From Lachnospiraceae bacterium (lineage in GTDB: Bacteria > Bacillota > Clostridia > Lachnospirales > Lachnospiraceae), in the NCBI GenBank assembly GCA_017462755.1, contig JAFTQM010000026.1:1-40934 (forward strand): a stretch of 40,934 nt of DNA, written 5' to 3'. The translations under genes and the position numbers were made by a program. The notes under the pieces are model-generated. The model ran no database searches. It was not told where the DNA came from and was given only the letters and a program-made list of their open reading frames with translations. Shown here in pieces: positions 33,996 through 40,934 of the stretch; positions within the stretch are counted from its first letter, which is position 1; the number at the start of each line of letters is the position of its first letter.

Positions 33996-35198
33996 ATGTT
34001 AATAGTAAAGAAGTTCGGCGGCACCTCTGTCGCTGATAAGGAAAGAATCTTCAATGTTGCCAGAAGATGTATCGAGGATTATAAGAAGGGAAATGATGTC
34101 GTAGTCGTTCTGTCCGCTATGGGTAAGTTTACCGATGTACTGGTAAGTCAGGCGAAGGATATCAATCCAAATCCTCCAAAGAGAGAGATGGATATGCTGT
34201 ACACCATCGGTGAGCAGCAGTCGGTTGCATTGATGGCAATGGCAATGGATAGTCTCGGAGTACCGGCAGTATCCCTGAATGCATTCCAGGTAAAGATGCA
34301 TACGACCTCGGCCTACGGCAATGCACGTCTGACCAAGATGGATACCGAGCGCATCCGCAACGAGCTGGACAGCCGTAAGATTGTACTGGTTACCGGTTTC
34401 CAGGGTGTAGATAAATCGGATAACTATACTACTTTGGGACGTGGTGGTTCGGATACGACCGCAGTAGCTTTAGCAGCTGCACTGCATGCAGATGCATGTG
34501 AGATTTATACGGACGTAGAAGGTGTATATACCGCAGACCCACGTTATGTAAAGAACGCAAAGAAGCTGGATGCAATCACCTATGATGAGATGCTTGACCT
34601 TGCCAGCTTAGGTGCAGGTGTATTGCACAATCGTTCAGTAGAAATGGCAAAGAGATATGGTGTTCAGCTGGTAGTACGTTCCAGCTTGAGCTTAGCAGAA
34701 GGAACAGTAGTGAAGGAGGCAGTAGACATGGAAGGAATGCTTATTAGCGGAGTAGCAAGTGATAAGAATACAGCACGTATTGCAGTAATTGGATTAGAGG
34801 ATCAGCCGGGTGTGGCTTTCAAGTTGTTTGACCACCTTGCAAGACACAACATCAACGTAGATATTATTTTACAGTCCGTAGGTCGTGACGGTACAAAGGA
34901 TATCAGCTTTACCGTAGCAAGAGATGACTTGGAGGAGGCAGTAGCTACCATCGAGCGTCACCGCAACACTTCCTTAAAGTGCGATAAGGTAGACGTAGAG
35001 GAGAATGTAGCAAAGGTTTCCATCGTAGGTGCAGGTATGATGACCAACCCTGGTGTAGCAGCAAATATGTTCGCAGCATTGTATGATGCAGGCATCAATA
35101 TCAAGATGATTTCTACTTCGGAAATCCGCGTAACCGTACTGATTGATGCACAGTACACCGAGAAGGCAATGAACGCAGTTCATGATAAGTTCTTCTAA
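33996..35198 (+). CDS. lysC: Aspartate kinase
   Basis: It phosphorylates aspartate, the first step to lysine, threonine and methionine. KKFGGTSV at the N-terminus, TLGRGGSDTTAVALAAAL and EIYTDVEGVYTADPR mark the catalytic domain. Two C-terminal ACT domains (from about 265: VIGLEDQPGVAFKLFDHLAR, and VSIVGAGMMTNPGVAANMF) bind feedback inhibitors. The length of 400 is typical of the monofunctional LysC. AGGAGG precedes ATG. Last gene of the operon, followed by a strong terminator. Confidence 0.96.
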   Translation: MLIVKKFGGTSVADKERIFNVARRCIEDYKKGNDVVVVLSAMGKFTDVLVSQAKDINPNPPKREMDMLYTIGEQQSVALMAMAMDSLGVPAVSLNAFQVKMHTTSAYGNARLTKMDTERIRNELDSRKIVLVTGFQGVDKSDNYTTLGRGGSDTTAVALAAALHADACEIYTDVEGVYTADPRYVKNAKKLDAITYDEMLDLASLGAGVLHNRSVEMAKRYGVQLVVRSSLSLAEGTVVKEAVDMEGMLISGVASDKNTARIAVIGLEDQPGVAFKLFDHLARHNINVDIILQSVGRDGTKDISFTVARDDLEEAVATIERHRNTSLKCDKVDVEENVAKVSIVGAGMMTNPGVAANMFAALYDAGINIKMISTSEIRVTVLIDAQYTEKAMNAVHDKFF

Positions 35199-35277: not shown

Positions 35278-37044
35278 TTATTCGGAAATATCGGCAAGCT
35301 TTTTAATCAATGCTTTTCCAATCATCATCAGCAGACCGCGTTCTACATTGGACCACTTACGGAAGCGGCTGAACAAATCGTAGCTTACGGCGATGCTGTC
35401 CTCTTTGGTGATGAAAAGATTGACATTGCCCTGAGCCTCCAGCTTTTGATAAATATCTTCCCACTTTTCCTTGATGCTGAGGAGCTTGTTGACGCACAAT
35501 ACTCCATTCATGTCAAATAAGGCGTCCTTGGTGCTGTCGTTCAAAAAGGCGGCATCTGTTAGCGGAGCAGGATATTCTCCGGCAGAAATCGTTCGAATAA
35601 AATCCTTGCCCTGATAGATTGCCACACCGTCAATACCAAATTCCTGTCGGATGCGGTCGATACACCATTCTACAGAGACATTAGGGTCGCGGATATCACT
35701 CATGACGGACATAGCAATGCTGCAAAGCTGATAATTGTCCTCGTAAAAATTATTTAAAGCGACCATTTTGTTGCTCTTGATATTCTCGATGTCACCATGC
35801 AGCTCCGGGCGGTAGATAATATAACGGTTCTTGCCCTTGGTCTTTGCCAGATACAGGCATTTGTCCGCAATCATCAAAAGCTCGTCATAGGTCTTGCCGG
35901 CTTCCGGATAGCAGGCAACACCGATGGAGGTAGTAATCTCAAAATCAGGCACGATATCTCTGCAATCCCAGGAAAGATTCTTGCGGATGGTTTTCAGCAT
36001 ATAGGTAAGTGATTCCTCATCTGCAATATTGTCCGTAATGACAAAAAATTCATCACCGCCAAAGCGTCCGACGTAGCCGCGTTCACCGACGTAGCGTTTG
36101 AACAGCTCTGCCGTTTTGACAATTACCTCATCGCCGGTCATATGACCGTATGTATCGTTGACGTTTTTGAAATCGTCAATGTCAATCATCATCACATAAT
36201 GACGCTTGCCATCCAGACTGGACAGAATATCAACGGCAAGCTCGCTGATGGCGCGTTTGTTGTAAACACCGGTAGCCAAATCAATGGCGTGGCTGGACTT
36301 GTAGTAACGGTCCTCTGATTCTTCGGCTTGTTCGTATTCGGTTTTGTTTACAACTGCGGCAAAAAGCAGTCGTTTGCCGTATTTGTATATGATACCGCCC
36401 TTGATATCCAACATACATTTGGCAATGCCAAATATACTGCCGTCCAACGAAAGACTAAGATTGTCCTTGCCCTCGGTCAGACTGTCATAAAGCAGACCAA
36501 AGCCCTGCTTTTGCTTTTTGGTATAGGACCGGCTGTTTACGATTTCGTTGTATAACACATCGATGTTTCGGTTAAAGAGAACGATGCCTCGGTCATTGAC
36601 ATATTCAAAAATATTGATGGTACGGCTGTCATAAAAATATTCGAAATAAATATTGTCGCTGTAATTCATGAACTTTTTGTTCTTGAAAGCACCATCCCGC
36701 AGCATGTCGAATTTTTTGTGATTGTTCGCGATATCAACAATCTCCATATCGATGGAATCCTTGCCCTTGTTCATGATGACATAAAGAAAACGATACTTTT
36801 CATCGATGCTGAAAAAACGAAGGGTCAGGTACTGCGTGCCCTCATCCAAACGTTCGACACACTCGTAAAAGGCAGGCAAATCGTCGGGATGCACCAGTGT
36901 AGTAAATGGACGTCCCGAGTTACAGCCCAGATATTTATATATTTTTTCATCTGCATTCACGATACTGTAGTCAAACTGGATTGACATCTTACCGTGAAAC
37001 AGCTGAAACTGGCTATCGTTATTGACATAGCTGGTAATGTTCAT
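35278..37044 (-). CDS. PAS-GGDEF diguanylate cyclase with C-terminal GAF-like domain
   Basis: The 588-residue soluble protein has a PAS-like N-terminus (about 20-105), a middle region of unknown type, a GGDEF domain (about 250-410) and a C-terminal part of about 170 residues that may be GAF-like. The active motif FGGDEF is intact (GGDEF at 329-333), with IDIDDFKNVNDTYGH upstream, so it should make cyclic di-GMP. The RxxD inhibitory site is absent at the expected place (residues 320-323 are GERG), so product inhibition is probably missing. No membrane segment. AGGAGG lies eight bases before ATG; a TATAAT box is at 37083-37078 on the minus strand. Divergent from the double-HTH regulator. Confidence 0.88.
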   Translation of the reverse strand: MNITSYVNNDSQFQLFHGKMSIQFDYSIVNADEKIYKYLGCNSGRPFTTLVHPDDLPAFYECVERLDEGTQYLTLRFFSIDEKYRFLYVIMNKGKDSIDMEIVDIANNHKKFDMLRDGAFKNKKFMNYSDNIYFEYFYDSRTINIFEYVNDRGIVLFNRNIDVLYNEIVNSRSYTKKQKQGFGLLYDSLTEGKDNLSLSLDGSIFGIAKCMLDIKGGIIYKYGKRLLFAAVVNKTEYEQAEESEDRYYKSSHAIDLATGVYNKRAISELAVDILSSLDGKRHYVMMIDIDDFKNVNDTYGHMTGDEVIVKTAELFKRYVGERGYVGRFGGDEFFVITDNIADEESLTYMLKTIRKNLSWDCRDIVPDFEITTSIGVACYPEAGKTYDELLMIADKCLYLAKTKGKNRYIIYRPELHGDIENIKSNKMVALNNFYEDNYQLCSIAMSVMSDIRDPNVSVEWCIDRIRQEFGIDGVAIYQGKDFIRTISAGEYPAPLTDAAFLNDSTKDALFDMNGVLCVNKLLSIKEKWEDIYQKLEAQGNVNLFITKEDSIAVSYDLFSRFRKWSNVERGLLMMIGKALIKKLADISE

Positions 37045-37197
37045 ACTGTATACCTCCTAATTGTCATATACTATTCTATTATACAATATCTTATTGGAAA
37101 ATGCACCTATTTTCAGAAGAATATTTCTCCTTTTCTGCTATTTACAGTGATTCGAATGGAATGAAACGGAACGAAAGGGAAAAAGCGACAGTTGCCC

Positions 37198-37226
37198 TTG
37201 AAGTAATATGACAAATTTGGTATAAT
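37198..37226 (+). promoter_or_regulatory. Promoter of the double-HTH regulator with embedded 13-mer operator
   Basis: TTGAAG (37198-37203), 17-base spacer, TATAAT (37221-37226). The spacer contains ATGACAAATTTGG (37208-37220). The identical 13-mer forms both arms of the palindrome at 39388-39475. A protein bound here would block RNA polymerase, so the regulator probably represses itself. Confidence 0.7.
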
Positions 37227-37261
37227 TGTCTAAAATAATAAGTTCGTGTGGTGATGAGTGA

Positions 37262-39109
37262 ATGGATTACGGAAAAATGATAGCGACCCTGCGGGTGCAG
37301 TGTGGATTTTCGCAGGCGAAGCTGATGTATGGAATCGGCGAAGCGCAAGAATTGTCGCGGTTAGAGCAAGGGTCGCGGATGCCGGAAAAGCTGCTGGCAG
37401 ATTCGCTGTTCCAGCGTATGGGAAAGACATCGGATGTGTTGGATTATACGGTTTCGGGAGAGGAATACCTGCTGTTGCTCCTGCGCGAATATATGAGATT
37501 CAACCTATTGGAGGGAAAATGGGAAGACAATCTGCCGGCTATGGCAATGTATGAGCAGGGCAAGGAGAAGGAGAAGCCGCTGCATCGTCAATATATTGGG
37601 CAGATACGCGCCCTGACGGAGTATCTGAGGGAGGATGATGTGCTGCTTTGCAAAGATTGTCTACAGGCGGCACTGGAGGTTACCTTTCCTGTCTGGCGAG
37701 AAGAGAGCTGGGAGGATTATTGCCTGTGTACGCAGGAACTGCGTCTGGCGATATTGCTGGCGTACTTTGAGGGGCAGTGTGACGAGTGCGAGACTGCGTT
37801 GCGGCTGCTGGAGCGGGTAAAGGATTATCTGGAGCGGCGTTACTGTCTGAGAGAGAAGATAAAGCTGTATCCGCAGTGTATCTGGGTCATGGCGAGGCTG
37901 TATGAAAGGCAGGGAGACTGGCTTCGGATGGAGCGGGTATGTGCGCAGGGAATACAGGTACTGTTGGAAAAGAGTGCGCTGTCTCTGTTAAAGGAGCTTC
38001 TGGAACTGCGCATCGCGGCGATTCGAGAGCTGCTAAAAGCTGCAGGAGCAGAGCAACGGACAGCATGGGAGAAGGTGCTGGAGGAGCTGGAGGCACAGTT
38101 AGAGAGTTTGAAGTTTGTGATAGAGGAATTTCATCAGGAGAAAAGGAACACACGGAATGCGGTGCAGCATATACTGATTCATTATAGTGACGATGAGATT
38201 GCGATTAATTATGAGACCCTGCGGGATTTGCGACTGGCACTGGGAATCTCGCAATTTGAACTGAGCGATGGTACGCGAAGTGCGGAGACGATATCCCGCA
38301 TCGAGAACGGTAAGCACAATCCGTCCCCTACGACCTTTCGTACCCTGAGCAATGCGATGGGAGTGCAGAGGAAATATCATCAGGGGCGTGTCGATACCAA
38401 TGATTATGCACTGCATGAGATGGTATATCAGCGAAATCAGGCAATTTTTCAGTTGGAGCTGGAGGAGGGCAAGCAAGTCCTGCGTGAGCTGGAGGCACAG
38501 CTGGATATGCGCCTGCCGATGAATCGCCAGTACATAGAGACTTGTAAGATACAGGAGCAGAGACATGAGAATACTATCTCATCGGAGGAAGCCATCGAGC
38601 AGCTTGTGAAAATCCTGCAGTATACGATGCCGGACTATCGGGGAGTCGTGAAGCGGGTGCCGACGCGGCAGGAGTTTATTGTATTGAATCAGATGGCAAT
38701 TTTCGAAAAACGGCGGGGCAATCCGGAGCGAAGTATTGAGATATGCGAAGAGCTATTGGCGGCATATCACAAGAGTATCGTGGAGGAGAAGCATCACACC
38801 AATTCGATAAAACTGCTGTATCTGAATTACGGAGAAAAGCTGGAGTGTGTCGGACGTCTGGATGAGGCAGAAGCGGCGGACCGCAGAGGTGTGGAAATAA
38901 CGATGGAATGTGAGCAATGCTCTATGATAGGGGAATATATGGCGAATCTGGCGTATGTGTATCGCAAGACGGCAGTACCGGAGAAGCAGGCAAAGATAGA
39001 GCCTTATCTCCGGCACGCCTATACGCTATGCCTAATGACAGGAGTCCCGCGGAAGGCGGAAATCGTGCGAAGATGTTATAAGGAGTGTTGTGGCGAGGAG
39101 TTGGTGTAA
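37262..39109 (+). CDS. Double-HTH helical-repeat regulator (RRNPP-like)
   Basis: The 615-residue protein looks like a duplicated XRE-plus-helical-repeat unit. The first half has an HTH (about 4-60, MIATLRVQCGFSQAKLMYGI, then LSRLEQGSRMP) and helical repeats to about 300. The second half has a clearer HTH (about 317-370, LRLALGISQFELSDGTRSAE, then ISRIENGKHNPSPTTFRTL) and TPR-like repeats to the end (IFEKRRGNPERSIEICEELL, RLDEAEAADRRGVEIT). HTH-TPR regulators of the RRNPP group (PlcR, Rgg, NprR) bind short exported and re-imported peptides. A secreted 50-residue peptide is encoded convergently 18 bases downstream, and a shared 13-mer links both promoters. Peptide sensing is inferred. Confidence 0.78.
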   Translation: MDYGKMIATLRVQCGFSQAKLMYGIGEAQELSRLEQGSRMPEKLLADSLFQRMGKTSDVLDYTVSGEEYLLLLLREYMRFNLLEGKWEDNLPAMAMYEQGKEKEKPLHRQYIGQIRALTEYLREDDVLLCKDCLQAALEVTFPVWREESWEDYCLCTQELRLAILLAYFEGQCDECETALRLLERVKDYLERRYCLREKIKLYPQCIWVMARLYERQGDWLRMERVCAQGIQVLLEKSALSLLKELLELRIAAIRELLKAAGAEQRTAWEKVLEELEAQLESLKFVIEEFHQEKRNTRNAVQHILIHYSDDEIAINYETLRDLRLALGISQFELSDGTRSAETISRIENGKHNPSPTTFRTLSNAMGVQRKYHQGRVDTNDYALHEMVYQRNQAIFQLELEEGKQVLRELEAQLDMRLPMNRQYIETCKIQEQRHENTISSEEAIEQLVKILQYTMPDYRGVVKRVPTRQEFIVLNQMAIFEKRRGNPERSIEICEELLAAYHKSIVEEKHHTNSIKLLYLNYGEKLECVGRLDEAEAADRRGVEITMECEQCSMIGEYMANLAYVYRKTAVPEKQAKIEPYLRHAYTLCLMTGVPRKAEIVRRCYKECCGEELV

Positions 39110-39127
39110 AAATCGTTGAAACGTAGA

Positions 39128-39280
39128 TTATTGTCTATCATCGTCGTCAAACGGTCCCTCAACCTCGCAGGTAGAGATTGGTGCGTCGGTGTTGGTAGCT
39201 TCGGATGCTGTCGACAGTGTCGCTGTGCAAAGGCACAGGAATAATATAAGGGATAAAAGTGTTTTTTTAAGATGCTTCAT
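39128..39280 (-). CDS. Small secreted peptide, candidate signalling peptide precursor
   Basis: The 50-residue product has a clear signal peptide: basic MKHLKK, hydrophobic TLLSLILFLCLCTATLSTA, and a likely cut near Ala25-Ser26. The mature part of about 25 residues is acidic (...PISTCEVEGPFDDDDRQ) with one cysteine. ATG 39280 has GGAGG five bases upstream, a strong RBS; the longer frame from 39346 has none. The size and layout match PapR/NprX-type pheromone precursors, and the gene sits directly beside an HTH-helical-repeat regulator. Its promoter region overlaps the 23-bp palindrome. That it is a signal for the regulator is inference. Confidence 0.7.
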   Translation of the reverse strand: MKHLKKTLLSLILFLCLCTATLSTASEATNTDAPISTCEVEGPFDDDDRQ

Positions 39281-39361
39281 GGTTTCCTCCAAAAAGATAA
39301 TATTTTCTTTGGGTAAATCGTGATGTACTTTGTAATCGTGGTTCACTCAAAGGATATGGGT

Positions 39362-39390
39362 AGTATAGCGGAAGTGTCGACAAGAAGCCA
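39362..39390 (-). promoter_or_regulatory. Promoter of the secreted peptide gene
   Basis: On the minus strand TGGCTT (39390-39385, weak), 17-base spacer, TATACT (39367-39362), about 80 bases before the ATG. The -35 overlaps the left palindrome arm. A poor -35 at an operator is typical of an activator-dependent promoter. Confidence 0.5.
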
Positions 39391-39475
39391 TGACAAATTT
39401 GGAGAATTTGTAACATTCGGATAATTTTTGAAAGAAAAAATCGAAAAAATTGCAAATTCTCCAAATTTGTCATGG
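39388..39475. repeat. 23-bp perfect inverted repeat, candidate operator
   Basis: Arm 39388-39410 is exactly inverted at 39453-39475, with 42 AT-rich bases between. Each arm contains ATGACAAATTTGG, which also lies in the regulator promoter (37208-37220). No T run follows on either strand, so it is not a terminator. It probably binds the double-HTH regulator. The long spacing could allow looping between two dimers or between the two HTH units of one protein. Confidence 0.7.
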
Positions 39476-39855
39476 TGGAAAAAAGGAAAGAGAGGTATAG
39501 TGTAGGTGATGAGCTCGTCAAAATAATAGAAAAAAGGAGAATTAAAGAAATTTGTAGGAGGCAGCTTGAATTTACCGTTGGAATTATATATCACTTCTGT
39601 TGCTCCGCAATATGTCGATGGCAATAATAAAAGAGTGATAACAACATTCAAAACAAAAACAACAGCTTATCCTGGTGGGTTATGGTAAATGGTATATGAA
39701 TCAAAAATAGCAGTTGAGGATGGATACAGTAGTATATAGGTTTGTTGATTTAGTCGTTTGACAAGAGATGATTATCCCTTGATAGGTTAGAGGGCTGAGT
39801 AGAAGAAAACTCTTGCGGGAGGGACGTTGATTAATTTGTTGTAGGAGAAGGGGCA
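39476..39855. other. Gap between palindrome and membrane protein gene
   Basis: Mostly non-coding apart from the doubtful small frame at 39566-39688. TTGACA at 39758-39763 could be the -35 of a promoter for the gene at 39856, but the -10 at 17 bases is poor (GATAGG). Confidence 0.35.
39566..39688 (+). CDS. Possible small ORF, 40 aa (doubtful)
   Basis: A TTG at 39566 follows AGGAGG (39556-39561) with only four bases between, and opens a 40-codon frame ending ...TTAYPGGLW and TAA. I recognise no family; the translation looks protein-like but has no signal peptide. It could be a real small gene or the tail of a decayed one. It lies about 90 bases beyond the palindrome and could share its control. 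Confidence 0.3.
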   Translation: MNLPLELYITSVAPQYVDGNNKRVITTFKTKTTAYPGGLW

Positions 39856-40934
39856 ATGGAGTGGTTTAAAGGAAAGTGGATTTTATTTGTTGCTATTGTG
39901 TTTGTGAGTGTATTCGGAGCATTTTTTTGTAAAAAGGAGGAAGTGGTTTCGGAGAACATTCCGGTTGTGTTGTATTCAGATTCGGCGCAAAACTATTCTC
40001 TACATGGAGTAAAACATATGTTGATAATAGAAGGAAAGATAATAAAGCGGTTGTTTCGGGCGGATGTGTTTGAAGGGGAGATTTATCTGGAAGGACACGA
40101 GGAAATGAAGCAGGCAGTAAAGGTAGTCGGCGGATTTCGAATCAAAGATAATACAATGGAATATGTGTATCAGGATGGTACAATACAGCAAAATGTAAAG
40201 CTGTTGTGGAATGAGAAGCGAGACAGGCTTGTGCTTTGTTTTACACAAAATGAGCGAAATGGTGAACCACTTGATACATATCTTGCGGTCGGTGCGTGTG
40301 ATTCTTTGTCGGAGGCAAAAGTATGTCTGAGTGAGATAGAGATCATCGGGATGAACACGGCAGTAAGCTATGAAGAAAAATTACTCAGAGAAGTGTTGGT
40401 AAATGAAGCCGGAACCGGGTTTACATTTCGTGGCGCAGAAGCTGCGTCGGAGGGAGAATTGCAGCAGAATATGGTGCTGTTGACGGAAGATACAGCGAAG
40501 AAATGTCTAGCGATTGATTCGGTTAAGGTGATGCCGGGAGATGGAGCGGGAAGTGAGATTTCGTTTGCGTTCCGATTCCGAAGTGTGGAAGAAATGCAGG
40601 AAGCGTATACCGTGTTTCAAAATGCATTGAATGTGTCGGAGCTTTCGGATGTGGAGAAACAGCAATATCTGGATGGAAGGAGCAGTTATACGGCGCAGGA
40701 TGGTTCGGTGCTGGAAGTGAGTGTAGATAAAAGAAGGATGAGATTTGATGTAACGATAAGGAGGGTCGGAGGCGAAGCGGAGAACGGCATCTTCAAGTTC
40801 GAATATTCTAAGGAACTGGAGAGTAAGCTTGCGGCAGAGGATTTGAAGCAGTTAAAGGAGCGCTTGCAGGGCGAGTTTGCGTTGGAAATCCTAGAGCAGA
40901 CCGAAGCGGGACTGCATGTGCGGGTAGTAGCGGA
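39856..40934 (+). CDS. Membrane-anchored hypothetical protein (partial, runs off the window)
   Basis: An open frame of 359 codons without a stop runs from ATG 39856 to the window end. AGGAG lies eight bases before the ATG. Residues 7-25 (KWILFVAIVFVSVFGAFF) form a membrane anchor or uncleaved signal; the following Cys is not in a proper lipobox. The rest is predicted extracellular, beta-rich and charged, with VLYSDSAQNYSLHGVKH early and FEYSKELESKLAAEDLKQLK late. I do not recognise the family. The codon use matches the core genes. It may be a target of the neighbouring peptide-regulator pair, by position only. Confidence 0.75.
   Translation, partial: MEWFKGKWILFVAIVFVSVFGAFFCKKEEVVSENIPVVLYSDSAQNYSLHGVKHMLIIEGKIIKRLFRADVFEGEIYLEGHEEMKQAVKVVGGFRIKDNTMEYVYQDGTIQQNVKLLWNEKRDRLVLCFTQNERNGEPLDTYLAVGACDSLSEAKVCLSEIEIIGMNTAVSYEEKLLREVLVNEAGTGFTFRGAEAASEGELQQNMVLLTEDTAKKCLAIDSVKVMPGDGAGSEISFAFRFRSVEEMQEAYTVFQNALNVSELSDVEKQQYLDGRSSYTAQDGSVLEVSVDKRRMRFDVTIRRVGGEAENGIFKFEYSKELESKLAAEDLKQLKERLQGEFALEILEQTEAGLHVRVVA

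What the first reader, a model, noticed from the sequence alone, without database searches (positions are those of the whole stretch)
37190..39480. Self-contained peptide-signalling circuit: double-HTH regulator, secreted peptide and shared 13-mer operator
The 13-mer ATGACAAATTTGG occurs three times here: between the -35 and -10 of the regulator's own promoter (37208-37220), and as both arms of a 23-bp perfect palindrome (39390-39402 and, inverted, 39461-39473) over the promoter of a 50-residue secreted peptide. By chance a given 13-mer is expected far less than once in 41 kb. The regulator has two HTH domains and helical repeats, like RRNPP quorum-sensing receptors but doubled. The parts fit a circuit of autorepression, peptide export and peptide-dependent switching that I do not recognise from known families.
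Basis: partly seen in the sequence, partly recalled or inferred. Interest (0 to 1): 0.82.

Follow-up and report, generated by a model that had tools for sequence, protein, structure and literature searches.

The report
Fused double quorum-sensing receptor with pheromone
A gut bacterium carries a gene switch that looks like two peptide-sensing regulators fused into one protein, paired with its own small secreted signal peptide and a mirror-image DNA site that appears to fire two promoters at once; relatives carry the same arrangement, but nothing has been tested at the bench.

Summary
The 13-mer occurs exactly three times in the window and nowhere else exactly in the held 2.73-Mb genome. The 615-aa regulator is a tandem duplication of an HTH+TPR unit; its C half matches PlcR over nearly its full length. 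The regulator-peptide pair is not a one-off: 41 of 59 distinct doubled receptors have a convergent 44-72 aa secreted-peptide ORF, against 10 of 166 control genes. The 'palindrome' looks like a bidirectional promoter: in anchored loci a -10-like box lies exactly 22 nt outside the arm's CAT, on the peptide side in 18 of 23 and on the opposite side in 14 of 20, with no -35 signal beyond chance. Operator sequence tracks the HTHs; peptide tails track the TPRs, with caveats. Opposite-side genes look RiPP/bacteriocin-like in 7 of 22 chosen loci. Best reading: a pheromone-activated, self-amplifying switch, a doubled variant of RRNPP quorum sensing outside the 250-500 aa rule of a published detector.

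The parts
37198..37226 (+). Regulator promoter: TTGAAG (37198-37203), 17-nt spacer, TATAAT (37221-37226)
37208..37220 (+). Half-site ATGACAAATTTGG inside the regulator promoter spacer (possible autorepression; not general in the family)
37262..39109 (+). Doubled RRNPP-like receptor/regulator, 615 aa, HTH-TPR-HTH-TPR
37271..37435 (+). N-terminal HTH region (residues about 4-58)
38213..38377 (+). C-terminal HTH region (residues about 318-372), PlcR-like; Pfam HTH_3 at 320-369
39128..39280 (-). Convergent 50-aa secreted peptide precursor (candidate pheromone), SD-like GGAGG upstream
39362..39367 (-). -10 box TATACT of the peptide promoter, 22 nt outside the CAT of the proximal arm
39388..39410 (.). 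Operator arm proximal to the peptide (23 bp)
39453..39475 (.). Operator arm distal to the peptide (23 bp, inverted copy, 42-bp gap)
39496..39501 (+). -10 box TATAGT of the opposing promoter, also exactly 22 nt outside the CAT
39566..39688 (+). Possible 40-aa target ORF (TTG start, SD GTAGGAGG at 39554-39561); no PHROGs match; not searched in Pfam or NCBIfam
39856..40934 (+). Possible target ORF with a hydrophobic start, at least 359 aa, runs off the contig; no Pfam, NCBIfam or PHROGs match

Best explanation
It works like RRNPP peptide quorum sensing, with a receptor that is a fused pair of HTH-TPR units. Inferred steps: the 50-aa precursor leaves through Sec, is cut to a short C-terminal pheromone, and is re-imported by an oligopeptide permease; the pheromone binds a TPR superhelix, perhaps the C-terminal one; the loaded receptor binds the arms of the inverted repeat through its HTHs. 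At each arm it sits where a -35 would be, 22 nt from a -10, and recruits RNA polymerase. Both arms fire outward: one way to the peptide gene (positive feedback), the other way to neighbouring target genes. In this locus a third half-site inside the regulator's own promoter probably lets the receptor limit its own expression. Shown here: architecture, homology, conservation of the pair, operator geometry and co-variation. Inferred: export, processing, import, binding and direction of regulation.
For: Internal duplication: hhalign 99.9%, E 4.7e-32 over 256 columns. C half to PlcR 2qfc residues 10-283, E 2.4e-19; N half to 4yv6/5w4m, E 1.7e-5 to 4.2e-5, named only 'Transcriptional regulator' in the output (that these are streptococcal Rgg proteins is recalled). 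Convergent peptide 41 of 59 against 10 of 166; 17 of the 41 peptide genes overlap the regulator stop by exactly 4 nt and 40 of 41 tails are net acidic. A post hoc motif [IV][SQET][TIVS][CYLF] is in 15 of 41 tails against a shuffled mean of 1.8, maximum 6. Operator-to-(-10) spacing of 22 nt in 18 of 23 (peptide side) and 14 of 20 (opposite side); the best offset in 2,000 random shifts never exceeded 13 on either side. A -35-like hexamer (4 of 6 or better) at spacing 16-18 in 4 of 18, as in control windows, 13 of 54. Operator distance correlates with HTH distance after removing TPR (partial r 0.31-0.41, p 0.0015-0.028, 18 loci). Peptide-tail distance correlates with TPR after removing HTH (0.37-0.38, 41 loci); with equal column numbers 0.29 against 0.04-0.12. 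Oligopeptide-permease-type binding-protein and ATPase domains are in the own genome.
Against: 18 of 59 doubled receptors had no peptide by the script; by hand one has a 77-aa peptide, one a frame-broken peptide, one too little sequence to judge, and two have the CATGAC repeat without a recognisable peptide. 18 of 41 peptide loci gave no CAT-anchored repeat, so the geometry rests on 23; the -10 cut-off is loose. The signal part of the precursor (residues 1-22) shows the same TPR-over-HTH pattern, weaker (0.24-0.26 against 0.09-0.10), and raw operator-TPR correlations are nearly as high as operator-HTH ones (0.48-0.53 against 0.52-0.59), so shared ancestry explains part of both. Autoregulatory half-site in only 2 of 21, near the chance rate at p<0.05. 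The own genome holds only this one doubled receptor among its two matches. Targets here are unrecognised and one is cut by the contig end. Secretion was called by a home-made hydropathy/RBS script, not SignalP. No structure could be predicted.
Confidence: 0.73

Rival explanations
1. The fused regulator is a repressor of both divergent promoters; peptide binding releases it (PrgX- or AimR-like), the two arms being bridged by a DNA loop.
For: In this locus the arm starts are 65 bp apart (39388/39453), and PrgX tetramers bind a 70-bp loop with two operators (passage in PMC5131891). The third half-site overlaps the spacer of a promoter that has a good -35, which suggests repression there.
Against: At the divergent promoters the operator occupies the -35 position and no -35 signal exceeds control windows (4 of 18 against 13 of 54), the layout expected of activation; 27 of 39 top-ranked repeats have arms no more than 15 bp apart, too close for a loop between separate sites.
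Confidence: 0.2
2. The small secreted peptide is itself an effector such as a bacteriocin, and the regulator responds to something else.
For: Peptides are hypervariable, and opposite-side genes look RiPP/bacteriocin-like in 7 of 22 chosen loci.
Against: Peptide tails co-vary with the TPR domains, 17 of 41 genes overlap the receptor stop by 4 nt, and the C half matches the peptide receptor PlcR.
Confidence: 0.13
3. The inverted repeat is a bidirectional terminator or a mobile-element remnant, unrelated to the regulator.
For: Long inverted repeats are common near genes; 18 of 162 control upstreams also scored at p<0.02.
Against: Fixed 22-nt spacing to -10-like boxes on both sides and co-variation with the HTHs.
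Confidence: 0.04

Closest known systems
PlcR-PapR (Bacillus cereus group)
   Same: C half aligns with PlcR residues 10-283; adjacent secreted precursor; HTH plus TPR
   Different: The PlcR chain is 293 aa, a single unit; here two units are fused and the peptide gene is convergent
Rgg-SHP (streptococci)
   Same: N half matches 4yv6/5w4m (Rgg identity recalled); neighbours are RiPP-type in some loci, as in Rgg-regulated RaS-RiPPs (titles and abstract starts)
   Different: SHPs use PptAB export (PMC10075063 passage); here the precursors look Sec-type and are 44-72 aa
ComRS
   Same: Pseudopalindromic 20-bp box with GACA/TGTC core (PMC5131891 passage) ahead of a TATAAT -10 (PMC4072589 passage); GACA is also in this 13-mer
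   Different: ComR is a monomer that dimerises on peptide binding; here two units are permanently joined and the site looks bidirectional
PrgX (pCF10)
   Same: Two operator sites bridged by a higher oligomer (PMC5131891 passage)
   Different: PrgX is described there as a repressor; doubled chain not described
Qsr/QssR of solventogenic Clostridium
   Same: RRNPP systems in Clostridia (PMC10075063 passage; PMC7206700 seen as listing and abstract start)
   Different: Validated receptors are quoted as 285-473 aa; this one has 615 aa

Membership tests
RRNPP (RRNPPA) peptide-sensing receptors | HTH plus TPR homologous to known members | tested here: met
   PlcR 2.4e-19 over one stretch (the profile's top row was an engineered TPR protein, and kinesin light chain and designed TPR proteins also match); Pfam HTH_3 above cut-off, TPR only below cut-off
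RRNPP (RRNPPA) peptide-sensing receptors | Adjacent small secreted propeptide gene | tested here: met
   Window pair; 41 of 59 relatives against 10 of 166 controls; secretion by home-made script only
RRNPP (RRNPPA) peptide-sensing receptors | Receptor length 250-500 aa (RRNPP_Detector rule, PMC10075063) | tested here: not met
   615 aa; rule seen in passages. It is a detector's size rule rather than a mechanistic criterion; each half is about 300 aa
RRNPP (RRNPPA) peptide-sensing receptors | One HTH-TPR unit per chain | tested here: not met
   Two units in one chain. So it is filed as a doubled variant that works like RRNPP, not as a canonical member
RRNPP (RRNPPA) peptide-sensing receptors | Pheromone binds the TPR domain | not testable with these tools
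   Indirect only: peptide-TPR co-variation
RRNPP (RRNPPA) peptide-sensing receptors | Re-import by oligopeptide permease | tested here: inconclusive
   SBP_bac_5 and oligo_HPY domains are in the genome; transport of this peptide untested

The most novel reading that the evidence does not exclude
A distinct RRNPP-type subfamily, seen mainly in Lachnospiraceae, in which an ancestral pair of different receptor units (still found as two overlapping genes in some species) became one covalent heterodimer. Each molecule reads one arm of an inverted repeat with two HTHs, so a dimer carrying four HTHs fires two opposed promoters at once, while the C-terminal TPR reads a private pheromone. Genomes with six, seven or more copies would run as many parallel peptide channels, some coupled to antimicrobial-peptide loci.
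Probability: 0.5. Interest if true: 0.82.

Novelty: new variant of a known kind. Interest (0 to 1): 0.72.

Why it matters
If true, a major gut-bacterial family has a layer of cell-cell signalling that a published genome-wide search would drop by its 250-500 aa size rule. The profile matches 48 of 397 sampled genomes of the family at E<=1e-15, single-unit relatives included, and three same-genus genomes gave 6, 6 and 7 distinct doubled receptors among the loci I fetched (tallied). The fused receptor and the rigid two-way promoter make an old question directly testable: how an RRNPP dimer couples peptide binding to DNA binding and polymerase recruitment. The operator signature also suggests which peptide loci each channel controls.

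Tried and rejected
The first scan of named genomes with the window protein found no relative; the second, with a close-ortholog alignment, found three same-genus MAGs already seen under G handles. Exact shared words between regulator promoter and downstream region are not general in the family. Autoregulation by a shared half-site was tested and is not general. A wider regulon was not shown: the 16-nt half-site at up to 3 mismatches has 25 matches in the own genome, 3 of them in this locus, against 10 for the reversed pattern, a modest excess; of the other 22 I checked four for a -10 at +22, and one passed my loose cut-off with a poor hexamer. The central relative L064 has no match in the plasmid collection and one in the phage collection, a 6-kb unannotated fecal contig. 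Across the phylum 2 of 398 genomes match at E<=1e-25, one the own genome, the other with single-half matches. Papers: PMC9765709, PMC12700828, PMC10075063, PMC5131891 and PMC4072589 were seen as search passages only; all others as listings or abstract starts.

That the doubled receptor is undescribed rests on literature searches and passage searches, in an open-licence library that lacks most subscription journals.
Full report
OBSERVATION. The first copy lies in the 17-nt spacer of a good promoter, TTGAAG-N17-TATAAT. The other two are the outer parts of two identical 23-bp arms of an inverted repeat with a 42-bp gap. By eye each arm has its own dyad, CAAATT-N5-AATTTG, so each may be a complete site. 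The expected exact count in the regulator intergenic region is 1.6e-5, with the reservation that the word was picked because it repeats.

THE REGULATOR. Pfam finds one HTH (residues 320-369) and sub-threshold TPRs. An alignment of 30 relatives, cut in half, aligns with itself over 256 columns at 99.9% probability, E 4.7e-32. Against solved structures the C half matches PlcR over residues 10-283 (E 2.4e-19), and the N half matches 4yv6 and 5w4m over residues 3-102 (E 1.7e-5 to 4.2e-5), which the output calls 'Transcriptional regulator' and which I recall as streptococcal Rgg; engineered TPR and kinesin light chain proteins also match the TPR parts, one of them ranking first. It is thus a tandem duplication of an RRNPP-type unit. 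In a tree of halves (59 doubles, 21 single-unit relatives), one split with support 0.98 has 59 of 59 C halves on one side and 54 of 59 N halves on the other; the five exceptions are distant members, four of them from one genome of another family (L045, L046, L050, L051) and L048, which may have another origin. Some species have two overlapping genes instead: in L100, L102, L035 and L103 the first gene groups with N halves and the second with C halves; overlaps are 19, 19, 19 and 28 nt, and three of these four have a convergent secreted peptide. L021/L055 (one locus) also has two adjacent units, both on the C side, without overlap or such a peptide. This suggests an old pair of different units that is either fused or co-expressed.

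DISTRIBUTION. With the window protein, 19 of 98 genomes, own included, match at E<=1e-3. Of the five same-genus relatives three list 10-11 matching stretches each and two, 67-68% complete, list 5 and 2; some stretches are halves or pieces of one protein. Among the loci fetched these three gave 6, 6 and 7 distinct doubled receptors (tallied). The own genome has two matches, this receptor and one single unit. With a profile, 48 of 397 genomes of the family, own included, match at E<=1e-15, single units included and with only three candidates scored per genome. One genome of another family of the order, G085, also has doubled receptors. Across the phylum 2 of 398 match at E<=1e-25, neither adding a double outside the own genome. 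Three same-genus relatives are named in public records as uncultured Lachnospiraceae MAGs.

THE PEPTIDE. From 62 doubled receptors (at least 480 aa) 59 are distinct. 41 of 59 have a convergent 35-75 aa ORF with a basic start, hydrophobic stretch and ribosome site within -200 to +700 nt of the stop; the same script finds one beside 10 of 166 other large genes in the same loci, one of the ten being a truncated family member. Of the 18 misses one has a 77-aa peptide, one a peptide with a broken frame, one only 92 nt of sequence, and two have the operator-like repeat but no recognisable peptide. In 17 of 41 the peptide gene overlaps the receptor stop by 4 nt; 40 of 41 tails are net acidic; a post hoc motif like ISTC occurs in 15 of 41 tails against a shuffled mean of 1.8. 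In the window the tail reads ...APISTCEVEGPFDDDDRQ.

THE OPERATOR. In the 200 nt upstream of the peptide, 30 of 41 loci have an inverted repeat beyond shuffles (p<0.02) against 18 of 162 control upstreams, some of which may be opposite-side genes sharing the repeat. Sequences differ, but 8 of 41 loci, each from a different genus, share CCATGAC/GTCATGG arms. In 23 of 41 the arm has a CAT-type anchor; 18 of 23 have a -10-like hexamer exactly 22 nt outside it. On the opposite side 14 of 20 do, and 14 of 20 have it on both sides. The best offset in 2,000 random shifts never exceeded 13 on either side. In the window both boxes are at 22 nt: TATACT 39367-39362 and TATAGT 39496-39501. A -35-like hexamer at the usual spacing is no commoner than in control windows (4 of 18 against 13 of 54), so the arm seems to take its place. 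This is the layout of an activated, bidirectional promoter. Scoring and anchor list are mine, the -10 cut-off is loose, and 18 of 41 loci were dropped for lack of an anchored repeat.

WHO TALKS TO WHOM. Operator distances correlate with HTH distances beyond the TPRs (partial r 0.31-0.41, p 0.0015-0.028; 18 loci, chosen to have a -10-like box); the raw correlations are 0.52-0.59 for HTHs and 0.48-0.53 for TPRs. Peptide-tail distances correlate with TPR distances beyond the HTHs (0.37-0.38) and not with HTHs beyond the TPRs (-0.05, 0.01); the signal part of the precursor shows the same pattern more weakly (0.24-0.26 against 0.09-0.10), so part of it is shared ancestry. With equal column numbers the tail contrast shrinks but stays, 0.29 against 0.04-0.12, and the C-terminal TPR is somewhat stronger than the N-terminal one. 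This is what a receptor that binds the peptide with its TPRs and the operator with its HTHs would leave behind.

TARGETS. Thirty opposite-side proteins from 22 chosen loci (of 41) were scanned with Pfam and ten with NCBIfam. Seven of the 22 loci look RiPP/bacteriocin-like: radical SAM with a weak PqqD part, then an ABC transporter (L062); radical SAM/SPASM (L112); ThiF-like, then M16 peptidase (L110); a small secreted protein with an ABC ATPase whose best NCBIfam match is a bacteriocin-export model, below its cut-off (L059, L106); and a small secreted protein with an ABC ATPase or FtsX permease (two L066 loci). The small secreted proteins themselves match no family. Others are subtilase, LRR surface protein, GH43, histidine kinase, EAL, MFS, S41 peptidase, lipase and HTH proteins, or unrecognised. 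In the window the opposite side has a 40-aa ORF with a strong ribosome site and an ORF of at least 359 aa cut by the contig end, neither recognised. Direct control of any of these is inferred from position.

AUTOREGULATION. A half-site in the regulator's own upstream region was found at p<0.05 in 2 of 21 loci, the window and one L066 receptor. It is real as sequence in the window but not a family feature.

VERDICT. It is best described as a fused, RRNPP-like quorum-sensing receptor with its own candidate pheromone and a two-way promoter. It works like Rgg/ComR/PlcR systems; it departs from them in the doubled chain and the apparently bidirectional operator. RRNPP_Detector accepts receptors of 250-500 aa (PMC10075063, passages), which would exclude it. 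No paper describing the doubled form was found in the searches listed under Tried and rejected.

Noticed in passing
window 35278-37044 (-): GGDEF-type gene (motif read by eye, no family search) between an aspartokinase-like gene (33996-35198) and the regulator; in L057 and L058 what looks like the end of the same kinase lies directly upstream of the regulator, so the locus seems syntenic.
   Followed up: partly
L100, L102, L103, L035: Two-gene versions of the receptor: overlapping N-type and C-type genes (19-28 nt), three of four with a convergent peptide; L102 has a 33-bp inverted repeat.
   Followed up: partly
L066 (both receptors): Two neighbouring paralogs share nearly the same long inverted repeat (GGCGTTTTGGTGACCA), and one has further copies upstream of its own receptor: possible cross-talk.
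   Followed up: no
L063 (two loci): CATGAC inverted repeat downstream of the receptor but no recognisable peptide gene: possible listeners without a signal.
   Followed up: partly
L117: Peptide-like frame broken near its start at a run of A; assembly error or decay cannot be told apart.
   Followed up: no
MT837868.1 2379-4118 (-): A 6-kb phage-labelled fecal contig encodes a 24%-identical relative over 94% of the query.
   Followed up: no
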